Positions 10,736 to 19,633 of a stretch of 33,914 bases of DNA are shown one piece after another. Numbering within the stretch: the stretch's first letter is position 1; the number at the start of each line of letters is the position of its first letter. Source of the DNA: a virus; IMG/VR virus record IMGVR_UViG_3300032291_002038, positions 1 to 33,914 of that record. The stretch is one strand, 5' to 3'. The translations under genes and the position numbers were made by a program. The notes beneath the pieces were generated by a model. The model ran no database searches. It worked only from the letters and a program-made list of their open reading frames with translations, and was not told the DNA's origin.

Positions 10736-10757
10736 AATGAAAAGAACGCTTCACAAT

Positions 10758-10960
10758 CCGGCAAATCCTGCGCCGGAAACGCCGGAAAGAAAAGGAATCC
10801 TTTTTATTGAGATACCCAAAAAAGGCATTTTGAAGGCTATTTCTGCCGGAAATGCCGGATTGGCCGGATGTTTCATATTAAATGTTAGGAAATCAATTTT
10901 CCTATCTGCTTTCTCAGCGCAGTTAGGTTTCACATCCCCTCTTTTCCGGCATTTCCGGCA
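10758..10960. repeat. CCGGAAAYGCCGGA repeat cluster, candidate replication origin
   Basis: In the 248-bp gap after the primase, the motif appears as GCCGGAAACGCCGGAA (10773-10788), TGCCGGAAATGCCGGA (10844-10859) with another GCCGGA at 10863-10868, and reversed as TCCGGCATTTCCGGCA (10945-10960). Shorter TCCGGCAAAT lies at about 10759. The second and last are a perfect 16-bp inverted repeat 85 bp apart, enclosing AT-rich DNA. Iterons beside a P4-type primase are expected of an origin. A transcript hairpin is the alternative. Confidence 0.5.
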
Positions 10961-10983: not shown

Positions 10984-11367
10984 ATGCCAACCTTCACCCA
11001 ACACGACCTTGAACGCCTCGGATACACCCTGCAACCAGACGGCTCCTATGCTCGAGCCAGTCATCACCCTACACCTGCCCGGATACCTGACCCCAAGCCT
11101 CAACCGGCTATTCGGCAAACACTGGACTGCCAGCCACCTCGAAAAGCAACTCGCACGGGCCGCGTTACTCTCCGCATTACGCGCCATGCCTGCCGCCTCC
11201 TTGATGCCGATAATTTTGCAGGCGGTTGCAAACCTCTCATCGATCAAATCCGATACGCCGCCCTCATCCCCGACGACGACCCTGCCAGCGTCGAACTCCA
11301 ATTCTGCCAAGAGAAAGTCGGCAAGAAACACCTCGAAATGACCACCATCGAAATCACGCACCCATGA
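10984..11367 (+). CDS. RusA-like resolvase C-terminal half (frame A)
   Basis: 127 aa. Residues from about 60 on read RVTLRITRHACRLLDADNF, then AGGCKPLIDQIRYA, IPDDDPASVEL and QEKV, with the Asp-rich pattern of RusA-family Holliday-junction resolvases (DADN, DDDP and the closing beta strand). The N-terminal 55 residues (LERLGYTLQPDGSYAR, then Pro-rich) do not resemble the RusA N-terminal core, which instead appears in the overlapping frame at 11048. Either this is a shorter variant or the full enzyme needs a frameshift. It overlaps the next gene (ATGA). Confidence 0.7.
   Translation: MPTFTQHDLERLGYTLQPDGSYARASHHPTPARIPDPKPQPAIRQTLDCQPPRKATRTGRVTLRITRHACRLLDADNFAGGCKPLIDQIRYAALIPDDDPASVELQFCQEKVGKKHLEMTTIEITHP
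11048..11341 (+). CDS. RusA-like N-terminal core in an overlapping frame (frame B)
   Basis: Frame +1 relative to the resolvase ORF, from ATG 11048. ITLHLPGYLTPSLNRLFGKHW then EKQLARAALLSALRA closely matches the start of RusA-type resolvases (beta strand, PSxNRL, basic helix). From about 11190 the frame becomes Ser/Thr/Pro-rich low complexity, a shadow of frame A, and ends at 11341. It may be half of a frameshifted gene, an independent overlapping gene, or the product of an indel. No strong slippery heptamer was found; the best is the poor CGAAAAG near 11132. Confidence 0.45.
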   Translation: MLEPVITLHLPGYLTPSLNRLFGKHWTASHLEKQLARAALLSALRAMPAASLMPIILQAVANLSSIKSDTPPSSPTTTLPASNSNSAKRKSARNTSK

Positions 11368-11558: not shown

Positions 11559-11758
11559 GTTACAAACCAACCAGCCTGTGCAAAGAGCGTGAATTAAGAA
11601 AAAAAGCGGAGCGAGAGCGAGACGAGGCGCGGGCCGTTGCATACGATCTGGCCGTTATCTCCTCACACTGCCTCGGATCGCACGGTTCTGCATTATTAAC
11701 CGAAACATCTGAAAGAATTGCAGACACATTGAAGCGGTGGAGGGAGCTAAAACAATGA
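11555..11758 (+). CDS. Small charged helical protein
   Basis: 67 aa. A Lys/Arg/Glu-rich helix (KERELRKKAERERDEARAV) is followed by a short segment with Cys and a second helix (SERIADTLKRWREL). It is coupled to both neighbours by ATGA overlaps, the downstream one being the sigma factor, so co-expression with it is expected. No family recognised. Confidence 0.55.
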   Translation: MSYKPTSLCKERELRKKAERERDEARAVAYDLAVISSHCLGSHGSALLTETSERIADTLKRWRELKQ

Positions 11759-12288
11759 GCGAGGACGCCATGACATCCTGCCTTCAACGCATCGCCACAG
11801 GCGACCAAGACGCGATGGCCGAGCTGTTCACCCTCACGCAGCCAGAAGTCACGCGCATCATCGCCTCAATCGTTCCGGCTGACGATGCTGGGGACATCTA
11901 CCAGACCGCCATGCTCAAGGTATGGCAGAAGGCCGGAACATTCCGCGCCGGGTCGCCCGTCATGCCGTGGCTTATCGGGATCGCTCGCCGAGCTGCCTTC
12001 GACCTCCTGCGCACTCGCAGGCGTAGAGTCGCCCTATTTGAAAAAAATAACGACTCGGAAGGCTCTCTCGTGCCGTCATTAAAAGAAGACCGGCGCGAGA
12101 TACGCCAACACCTGGACAACCTGACAGCCATGCAAAGTAAAATCATCCGCTTGAGCTTTTTCAAAAACCTCCCTCTGAAAGACATCGCCGCACAGGAAGG
12201 AATCACGCTCAACCAAGCTCGCACTCTTCGCAGAAAAGCACTTAACACGCTGAAAGAAAGCCTCAACCTTGAAAATCTCCTCGACTAA
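11755..12288 (+). CDS. Phage-encoded ECF-type RNA polymerase sigma factor
   Basis: 177 aa, two-domain layout of group-4 sigma-70 factors. Region 2 (about 20-90) shows FTLTQPEVTRIIASIV, DIYQTAMLKVWQKAGTFR and WLIGIARRAAFDLLRTRRRR. Region 4 (about 120-170) shows AMQSKIIRLSFFKNLPLKDIA then GITLNQARTLRRKALNTLKE, a helix-turn-helix for -35 recognition. No anti-sigma gene is adjacent. Placed after the replication genes and just before a Mor-like activator and the late operon, it probably redirects host polymerase to phage middle or late promoters. Family call is firm; target promoters are unknown. Confidence 0.9.
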   Translation: MSEDAMTSCLQRIATGDQDAMAELFTLTQPEVTRIIASIVPADDAGDIYQTAMLKVWQKAGTFRAGSPVMPWLIGIARRAAFDLLRTRRRRVALFEKNNDSEGSLVPSLKEDRREIRQHLDNLTAMQSKIIRLSFFKNLPLKDIAAQEGITLNQARTLRRKALNTLKESLNLENLLD

Positions 12289-12466
12289 ATACAAAGATGG
12301 GACAGCTCACCACGCCGCCCGTGGTTATGTCGTCCTATGGGCAAGGCTCATGTCACACGCCAAGCCCAACCATCGCGGCTCTATGGCCGAAATCAGCCGC
12401 GAAATGATGGAGGCCATAGATGTCGATGAGCAACGCCAGGACAAAGGGGAGGCGCATGAACTCTGA
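12269..12466 (+). CDS. Small hypothetical protein, start uncertain
   Basis: The frame opens at a TTG (12269) inside the sigma-factor end, and reads DGTAHHAARGYVVLWARLM, HRGSMAEISREMMEAIDVDE. The first ATG in frame is 12350, giving 39 aa. Codon use is phage-like, and the stop overlaps the following gene by 11 bp. It could be a short helical protein linking the two regulators. Weakly supported. Confidence 0.4.
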   Translation: MKISSTKYKDGTAHHAARGYVVLWARLMSHAKPNHRGSMAEISREMMEAIDVDEQRQDKGEAHEL

Positions 12467-12929
12467 AATCCCTTTACCACCGACAGCGCAAGTCGTTGCC
12501 GATGTCATCGGACGCGAGGCCACGCTGGCCCTTGCCATGTCCTGCCTGTATCGCTGCCTTTATGTCCCGAAAGGGCGGCTCGCCTCTGACAGCTATCTCG
12601 TGCGGACAATCGGAGAGGACAAGGCCAAGCTCATGCAAAGGGAGTTCTGCGGGATGCTCTTACCGCTGGCAACCTGCCATCACATCGCCGTATTTGAACG
12701 CCAGCAACGCATCCGTGCTGCCGTATCAGAAGGAAAGACACACGCGCAAGTTGCAGTTGCGTATGGCCTCACGGTCAAATGGGTGCGCAACCTCTGCGCT
12801 CGCAAGCCAGACGAATATCGCTACCCACTCAAAGCCTTCGACCAGCCACCAGCCGGGGGGGTAGTAGGTTCTTCCACGGGGGTTAGGGAGCGGGTATGCG
12901 GAAACTCGCGGAATTTGATTAGAGATTGA
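12456..12929 (+). CDS. Mor-like middle/late transcription activator
   Basis: 157 aa. IPLPPTAQVVADVIGREATLALAM, CLYVPKG, LVRTIGEDKAKLM, then RQQRIRAAVSEGKTHAQVA and a C-terminal helix-turn-helix YGLTVKWVRNL follow the pattern of the Mu Mor/C activator family (N-terminal dimerisation domain, C-terminal HTH). Mor-type proteins bind a dyad just upstream of a poor -35 promoter and recruit host RNA polymerase. It lies directly ahead of the packaging and morphogenesis genes, so late-gene activation is the likely role. The last 30 residues are low complexity. Confidence 0.75.
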   Translation: MNSEIPLPPTAQVVADVIGREATLALAMSCLYRCLYVPKGRLASDSYLVRTIGEDKAKLMQREFCGMLLPLATCHHIAVFERQQRIRAAVSEGKTHAQVAVAYGLTVKWVRNLCARKPDEYRYPLKAFDQPPAGGVVGSSTGVRERVCGNSRNLIRD

Positions 12930-12969: not shown

Positions 12970-13581
12970 ATGGACAACCTGAACGAGCTTTTCCGACCCA
13001 TCGACTACGGAGTCAGCCTGGAGACAACCGAAACAATCACGCCCCGAAAGGTAAGAATCGACGGGAAAAGGAAAATGATAACCTGCTTAAAGAAGGAAAA
13101 AGCCAAGGATTTTCTGGGAGATCCGCCAAAGCCCGGAGAGTTTTTCCACATCGTTTCAAACGGCTCTTTCGACTACTGGCAGCTCTGTCCGCTCCTCATC
13201 GAACTGACAAAGGCAAAAAATGTCACGATTCACGCCTCAACTTGGACGCTTAACCGTCAAAACGCTCTGGAAATGCTGCAAATGATGGACGACGGGCGGT
13301 GCGGGAGCCTTTCGCTACTAACGGGAACCTATTTCAAACGAAGAGAAAGCGCCGTGTTTGCCACAATCGCCAACGGGCTGCTACAGCGAGGCCAAAAAAT
13401 ACGCGCTTTGGAAAATCACGCCAAAGTTCTTTTGATAGACGACCACGCCGGAAACTACTTCGTGATGGAAGGATCGGCCAACTTCACAGCAAATCCGCGG
13501 ATTGAGCAAAACATCATCGGAAACAATCGAGAACTTTATGAACACCACAGAGGATGGATCGAAGAAGCCTTCACAATCTAA
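12970..13581 (+). CDS. Phospholipase D-like nuclease (single HKD)
   Basis: 203 aa. His150-x-Lys152-x4-5-Asp157/158 in ENHAKVLLIDDHAGNYF followed by MEGSANFTANP (Asn171) is the HKD motif plus GS/N element of PLD-superfamily nucleases such as Nuc/BfiI, which act as dimers with one HKD each. The N-terminal half (FHIVSNGSFDYWQLCPLLIEL, VTIHASTWTLN) fits the same alpha/beta fold. It is the first gene of the packaging operon, next to the terminase subunits. It may cleave DNA during packaging or in host takeover; the substrate is not evident. The next gene starts inside its end. Confidence 0.8.
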   Translation: MDNLNELFRPIDYGVSLETTETITPRKVRIDGKRKMITCLKKEKAKDFLGDPPKPGEFFHIVSNGSFDYWQLCPLLIELTKAKNVTIHASTWTLNRQNALEMLQMMDDGRCGSLSLLTGTYFKRRESAVFATIANGLLQRGQKIRALENHAKVLLIDDHAGNYFVMEGSANFTANPRIEQNIIGNNRELYEHHRGWIEEAFTI

Positions 13582-19590: not shown

Positions 19591-19633
19591 ACCCGCCCCG
19601 CCTCTCAACGATGCGTAATTGGGCGGGTTTTTT
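19591..19633 (+). terminator. Strong Rho-independent terminator
   Basis: ACCCGCCC (19591-19598) pairs perfectly with GGGCGGGT (19621-19628) and runs into six T (19628-19633). It ends the portal-to-first-fibre transcript. Confidence 0.85.

What the first reader, a model, noticed from the sequence alone, without database searches (positions are those of the whole stretch)
10984..11367. RusA-like resolvase encoded across two overlapping frames
The enzyme's N-terminal core (ITLHLPGYLTPSLNRLFGKHW and a basic helix) is in frame B from 11048, while the catalytic Asp-rich C-terminal core (LLDADNF, IPDDDP, QEKV) is in frame A. A single RusA would need a -1 shift from B to A near 11100-11190, yet no good slippery heptamer is present. 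Possibilities are programmed recoding, an overlapping two-subunit resolvase, or a frameshift mutation/sequence error. Conservation of the arrangement in relatives would make it a new gene architecture.
Basis: partly seen in the sequence, partly recalled or inferred. Interest (0 to 1): 0.7.

Follow-up and report, generated by a model that had tools for sequence, protein, structure and literature searches.

The report
Split RusA resolvase from overlapping frames
In this virus, probably of Verrucomicrobiota, one stretch of DNA is read in two frames to make the two halves of one DNA-junction-cutting enzyme (RusA); the layout is conserved across many related viruses, so it is real and appears to be an undescribed gene architecture.

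Summary
Frame A (10984-11367) carries a small N-terminal module, an unstructured linker and the RusA C-terminal half (beta2 to end, catalytic Asp). Frame B, +1 relative to A (11048 or 11009 to 11341), carries the RusA N-terminal half (beta1-alpha1), written inside A's linker. 157 fetched loci (98 distinct sequences) and a divergent second clade (46 distinct) keep exactly the same offset; rarer spacings stay in phase. Constraint runs A, then B, then A. In codons 11161-11179 both frames are constrained, and A's constraint begins before B's ends. A simple -1 frameshift fusion cannot explain that, and it would also drop about 12-17 residues present in single-frame RusA relatives. Both frames avoid stop codons. 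Relatives show every arrangement: one-frame fusion (L199, L200, L277), overlapped with B first (L282, L292), embedded (here), and fully separate genes flanking an HNH endonuclease gene (L302-L304, whose 70-aa C-half passes the Pfam RusA cut-off). Best explanation: two independently initiated polypeptides co-assemble into one RusA-like resolvase. Splitting is strongly supported by sequence; assembly and catalysis are inferred. No description was found in the literature searched.

The parts
10984..11367 (+). ORF A: N-terminal module + linker + RusA C-terminal half (127 aa, ATG start)
11048..11341 (+). ORF B, +1 frame, embedded in A: RusA N-terminal half (beta1-alpha1) plus fast-evolving basic tail; ATG 11048 (MLEPVITLHLPGYLTPSLNRLFGKHW...), alternative TTG start 11009
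10984..11058 (+). N-terminal module of A (LERLGYTLQPDGSYARA), under selection in frame A (wA 0.35, wB 1.39 over a 21-codon window)
11059..11160 (+). Linker of A, predicted unstructured; the same bases encode B's beta1 and most of alpha1; no A-frame stops in any relative tested (0 vs 11.9 expected)
11060..11179 (+). Constrained part of B: beta1 - TPSLN - alpha1 (VITLHLPGYLTPSLNRLFGKHWTASHLEKQLARAALLSAL)
11161..11179 (+). Dual-coded block: A reads RVTLRI (start of beta2), B reads ALLSAL (end of alpha1); both constrained, fewer changes per codon than either neighbour
11203..11277 (+). Catalytic core of A: D74, D76, K83, D98 (LLDADNFAGGCK...PDDDP), the expected counterparts of RusA D70, D72, K76, D91
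   Evidence: correspondence of single residues rests on my knowledge of RusA
11180..11341 (+). Tail of ORF B: not conserved in sequence (wB > 1) but kept open; stop at 11339-11341

Best explanation
The locus encodes a split RusA-like Holliday junction resolvase made as two separate polypeptides from overlapping frames. Ribosomes starting at the A start (10984) make protein A: a small N-terminal module, a flexible linker and the catalytic C-terminal half (beta2, the DxDN helix, the last two strands). Ribosomes starting independently in the +1 frame (ATG 11048, or TTG 11009) make protein B, the N-terminal half (beta1, the SLN loop, helix alpha1). B packs onto A to complete the RusA fold, and two such pairs would form the active dimer that resolves branched DNA during phage recombination or replication. 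A does not need its linker folded, so those bases are free to encode B. Shown: both frames are conserved protein-coding sequence, the halves correspond to complementary parts of RusA, relatives exist as fused, overlapped, embedded and separate genes, and the constraint pattern excludes a simple -1 fusion as the sole product. Inferred: translation of B, A-B assembly, and resolvase activity.
For: Layout invariant: 157 loci at 107 nt (SLN to D), 97 second-clade hits (46 distinct sequences) at 110 nt from P (the same offset), 19 of 20 third-clade loci at 107 nt from P; all other spacings are also 2 mod 3. Frame-specific selection A-B-A with a dual-constrained block of 6 codons in both clades: 9.2 and 10.3 changes per codon against 16.6 and 24.0 just upstream and 20.7 and 19.0 just downstream. 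In clade 1, A-frame R60 and I65 are fixed at bases that are free in B, while B-frame L, A, L are fixed at bases that are free or nearly free in A, so A's constraint begins before B's ends. Stop avoidance: A frame over B 0 vs 11.9 and 0 vs 13.2 expected; B tail 2 vs 16.4 and 0 vs 24.8. All 143 distinct untruncated B ORFs have a start before beta1 (136 ATG, 7 TTG/GTG); in L273 and L275 the B frame is closed by a stop between A's start and B's ATG. Model of A: beta2 starts at residue 61 after an unstructured linker; residues 58-127 align with E. coli RusA 52-117 at 22% identity. L302-L304: N-half and C-half are separate genes with an HNH gene between; the 70-aa C-half of L304 passes Pfam RusA (25.4 vs 22.8 bits). 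The halves joined score as RusA where neither half of L176 alone does.
Against: No proteomic or biochemical data. B alone is not recognised by any profile, and its AlphaFold model is poor (mean pLDDT 63). The A-B complex could not be modelled. In part of the window's own group (L005, L007, L008, L010, L011) B has only TTG starts, and no Shine-Dalgarno precedes A or B in the window. RusA's fold match is modest (Z 4.4, tied with unrelated MIF folds). B's tail is kept open without sequence constraint, which the model does not explain.
Confidence: 0.83

Rival explanations
1. Programmed -1 ribosomal frameshifting: ribosomes start in B, slip back one base near 11100-11190 and finish in A, giving one RusA chain.
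For: The frame relation is -1 from B to A everywhere. B is kept open past the overlap. One paper lists RusA/RuvC among phage genes said to contain frameshifts (PMC10885494).
Against: No conserved slippery heptamer in the aligned block (sequence). A's constraint starts 6 codons before B's ends. The fusion would put about 28 residues between the HW motif and the catalytic Asp, against 40-45 in the single-frame RusAs Mx8 p24, L200 and L277. A's own N-terminal module is under selection in frame A. In L302-L304 the halves are separate genes.
Confidence: 0.07
2. A by itself is the enzyme, or a degenerate binding protein; B is an independent overprinted small protein that only resembles a RusA N-half.
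For: B alone has no convincing profile match.
Against: B carries the canonical RusA N-half motif, and joining it to A extends the RusA match in register. A lacks beta1-alpha1 and aligns only with RusA 52-117. The halves travel together in all clades, even when separated.
Confidence: 0.07
3. Frameshift mutation or assembly error in an ordinary rusA.
For: A single-frame RusA exists in distant relatives.
Against: Same layout in about 144 distinct sequences of two divergent clades, plus purifying selection in both frames.
Confidence: 0.01

Closest known systems
RusA Holliday junction resolvase (Pfam PF05866, PHROG phrog_34 / phrog_1682; E. coli RusA, PDB 1Q8R, 2H8C)
   Same: Sequence core DxDN...K...D, beta2-onward fold, N-half beta1-SLN-alpha1, phage replication/recombination context
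   Different: RusA is one chain; here the chain is broken between alpha1 and beta2 and both sides of the break are encoded by the same bases
Lambda Rz/Rz1 spanins (Rz1 embedded in the +1 frame of Rz; embedded, overlapped, separated and unimolecular forms exist; PMC6139136)
   Same: Two partners of one functional unit, one embedded in the +1 frame of the other, with the same set of alternative architectures
   Different: Spanins are two whole proteins that interact; here the two ORFs encode two halves of one globular domain, and A also carries a separate N-terminal module
Genes-in-pieces by homing endonuclease insertion (Aeh1 nrdA/mobE, phage 25 gene 43, T4 gene 60/mobA; PMC2988022)
   Same: An enzyme split into two polypeptides that reassemble; L302-L304 carry an HNH gene between the halves
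   Different: In the window there is no insertion; the halves overlap and share coding bases
Programmed frameshift genes (for example dnaX, tail assembly chaperones)
   Same: Two overlapping frames at a -1 offset, both conserved
   Different: No slippery signal, crossing constraint zones, independent starts

Membership tests
RusA resolvase | C-terminal catalytic core (two Asp in DxDN, Lys, third Asp) | tested here: met
   D74, D76, K83 invariant and D98 nearly invariant across 33 divergent members; phrog_34/1682 hits in 17 of 17
RusA resolvase | N-terminal half beta1-loop-alpha1 with the SLN/HW motif | tested here: met
   Present, but in frame B; joined sequences match phrog_34 at 82-169 (window) and 76-192 (L083)
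RusA resolvase | Fold similar to E. coli RusA | tested here: inconclusive
   Model of A 58-127 vs 1q8r 52-117, Z 4.4, 22% identity, tied with unrelated folds; the A-B complex was not modelled
RusA resolvase | Single polypeptide | tested here: not met
   No frame encodes the whole domain; crossing constraint; separate genes in L302-L304
RusA resolvase | Resolves Holliday junctions as a dimer | not testable with these tools
   Needs biochemistry
Programmed -1 frameshift gene | Conserved slippery heptamer in the 0 frame near the switch | tested here: not met
   No X XXY YYZ in the B frame of the block by inspection; no conserved homopolymer in the aligned columns
Programmed -1 frameshift gene | One switch point in coding constraint | tested here: not met
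   A constraint begins at 11161, B constraint ends at 11179
Embedded two-component gene pair (Rz/Rz1 type) | Second ORF wholly inside the first in another frame, both under selection | tested here: met
Embedded two-component gene pair (Rz/Rz1 type) | Products interact physically | not testable with these tools
   Inferred from complementary halves of one fold
Genes-in-pieces by homing endonuclease | Endonuclease gene between the halves | tested here: not met
   Not in the window; met only in L302-L304

The most novel reading that the evidence does not exclude
A family of split resolvases passes through fused, separated, overlapped and embedded gene arrangements. In the embedded form a 6-codon block encodes, in two frames at once, the end of helix alpha1 and the start of strand beta2, two elements that would belong to one and the same folded enzyme: a single domain whose two neighbouring secondary-structure elements are overprinted on each other.
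Probability: 0.7. Interest if true: 0.85.

Novelty: new variant of a known kind. Interest (0 to 1): 0.8.

Why it matters
Embedded genes are known for whole interacting proteins, and split enzymes are known from insertions. I know of no case, and found none in the papers searched, in which the two halves of one compact catalytic domain are written in overlapping frames with dual-constrained bases. It shows how gene fission can grow into overprinting, and gives a natural panel of fused, separate, overlapped and embedded forms for testing that path. Annotation pipelines would keep A alone and miss the N-half, so such resolvases go unrecognised: A alone, B alone and even the joined form had no Pfam match in the window.

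Tried and rejected
Pfam, PDB sequence and INPHARED searches with the window's A or B gave no useful hit; RusA was reached only through PHROGs and the joined sequence. 'relatives' cannot be drawn for a virus record. L169's A protein found no viral relatives. I first thought L169 was an ordinary RusA with one frameshift; base-level display showed the embedded layout at 119 nt. I first thought an ATG/GTG/TTG start inside the TWN codons of the third clade was conserved; 5 of 20 have CTG, so that claim was dropped. AlphaFold of B alone is poor. Direct fusions at two points of the overlap scored lower against single-frame relatives than the joined halves, but by at most about 6 bits, so this alone is weak. 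A self-splicing intron between the separated halves was looked for in Rfam and not found. No promoter-like or terminator-like site was found around the gene. Foldseek with A gave no hit at E 0.001. Caveats: several loci are re-fetched copies of one contig, so counts of distinct sequences are the ones to use; the patterns used for scanning come from both frames, but they are peptides and would also have found single-frame copies, and did (L199, L200, L277). In the stop-avoidance tests codons are drawn from the pooled usage of the same region.

Full report
WHAT IS THERE. The window is a complete IMG/VR virus record of 33,914 bases. Frame A, 10984-11367, encodes 127 aa; frame B, one base further on, is open from 11009 (TTG) or 11048 (ATG) to 11341. 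Frame A residues 55-101 match the RusA family (phrog_34, E 1.7e-4, profile 122-169); frame B alone matches nothing. If B's beta1-alpha1 is joined to A's beta2 onward, keeping the residues that both frames draw from the shared bases, the match becomes continuous (profile 82-169) and stronger, and similar extensions are seen for other members. In a second clade neither half of L176 alone is recognised but the joined form is. So each frame holds one half of a RusA.

CONSERVATION. A search of IMG/VR with the joined protein gave 80 loci, and a search with the B profile gave 80 more, many from the same contigs. All 157 loci that hold both motifs at the common spacing have exactly 107 nt between SLN in B and DxDN in A, 2 modulo 3; L141 has 128. 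An HMM search of 388 Verrucomicrobiota genomes found very divergent members, which led to a second clade (LLDEDNLCEKYHVD): 97 hits, 46 distinct sequences, all at the same offset, and to a third (DPDGISAK; 19 of 20 loci at 107 nt from P, one at 113). L169 has 119 nt, again 2 modulo 3. Three members lie in Verrucomicrobiota metagenome-assembled genomes, so the host is probably of that phylum.

SELECTION. In clade 1, independent sequence pairs show constraint in B for codons -46 to about -11 counted from the catalytic Asp (wB 0.06-0.34, wA above 1.5) and in A from codon -2 onward (wA 0.02-0.3, wB above 1). The N-terminal 21-codon window of A is constrained in frame A (wA 0.35, wB 1.39). Constraint therefore runs A-B-A along the gene. 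Base-by-base counts on trees show a block, codons -14 to -9 (window 11161-11179), with fewer changes than either neighbour: 9.2 per codon against 16.6 and 20.7 in clade 1, and 10.3 against 24.0 and 19.0 in clade 2. In clade 1 the first bases of codons -14 and -9 never change although B leaves them free, so A's Arg60 and Ile65 are selected; the third bases of -13, -10 and -9 never change although A leaves them free or nearly free, so B's Leu, Ala and Leu are selected. A's constraint thus begins before B's ends, which no single B-to-A switch produces. Both frames also avoid stops: the A frame across B has 0 stops where 11.9 and 13.2 are expected, and the B tail has 2 and 0 where 16.4 and 24.8 are expected. 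The tail is open but not conserved; why is not explained, and L083 and L169 do without most of it.

WHY NOT A FRAMESHIFT. Single-frame relatives exist: L199, L200 and L277 and, further away, Mx8 p24. They have 40-45 residues between the HW (or HY) motif and the catalytic Asp. A -1 fusion here would have about 28, because the end of helix alpha1 and the start of strand beta2 are written in the same bases. No conserved slippery heptamer is seen. Every one of 143 distinct untruncated B ORFs has a start before beta1 (136 ATG), and in L273 and L275 the B frame is closed by a stop just upstream of that ATG. In L282 and L292 it is instead A's frame that is closed just upstream or inside the overlap, so the pair is overlapped with B first. 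In L302-L304 the halves are separate genes, their motifs 681-1229 nt apart, with an HNH endonuclease gene between them; no intron is detected. The 70-aa C-half of L304 passes the Pfam RusA cut-off on its own.

STRUCTURE. The AlphaFold model of A (mean pLDDT 82.6) has a small N-terminal helix-hairpin (6-24), no structure in 25-60, and a confident domain from strand 61-69 onward. Residues 58-127 align with E. coli RusA 52-117 at 22% identity, Z 4.4; the Z is tied with unrelated folds, so this is support, not proof. B supplies about the 50 residues that A lacks. B alone models poorly, as expected for a fragment.

MECHANISM. Most likely A and B are initiated separately, fold together as one RusA unit and dimerise to cut four-way junctions. 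Shown: two conserved coding frames, complementary halves, independent existence of both halves in relatives. Inferred: expression of B, assembly, catalysis, dimerisation. The N-terminal module of A is exchanged among clades (PDGSY, LFPNAS or zinc-ribbon type), which suggests an adaptor; that is inference. A likely path of origin is fission of a single-chain RusA between alpha1 and beta2, followed by growth of the overlap as A's start moved upstream; direction and number of events were not tested.

COMPARISON. Architecture parallels the lambda spanins, where Rz1 is embedded in the +1 frame of Rz and embedded, overlapped, separated and single-chain forms exist (PMC6139136). Function parallels genes-in-pieces such as the split NrdA of Aeh1 (PMC2988022). 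What differs is that the embedded pair are two halves of one domain. Searches of the open literature found no report of it; PRFect mentions RusA/RuvC among genes said to hold frameshifts, in actinophages, without this layout. Subscription papers were not searchable.

Noticed in passing
window 11737-12288: The phage encodes an ECF-like sigma factor (Pfam Sigma70_r2 and r4), to my knowledge unusual for a phage of this size; next to it at 12420-12929 lies a protein with a match to the Mor activator family (E 3.9e-5, just below the Pfam cut-off).
   Followed up: no
window 10844-10960: Perfect 16-nt inverted repeat TGCCGGAAATGCCGGA / TCCGGCATTTCCGGCA with 85 nt between the arms, just upstream of gene A; a third related arm at 10754-10771.
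   Followed up: no
window 19592-19628: Rfam abiF RNA match above the gathering score (42.7 vs 37 bits).
   Followed up: no
L302:1448-1996, L304:900-1514: HNH endonuclease genes sit between the separated RusA halves; possible homing endonucleases that entered the split gene.
   Followed up: partly
L304:1971-2183: The 70-aa C-half also matches phrog_1532, an 80-aa family of unknown function, which may therefore consist of stand-alone RusA C-halves.
   Followed up: no
ORF B tail, window 11180-11338 and relatives: The tail is kept free of stops far beyond chance but its amino acids are not conserved; it is often rich in Ser, Lys and Arg.
   Followed up: partly
window 12970-13581: Weak match to a PLD-like domain (E 2.3e-4, below the Pfam cut-off) in a protein between the regulatory and packaging genes.
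   Followed up: no
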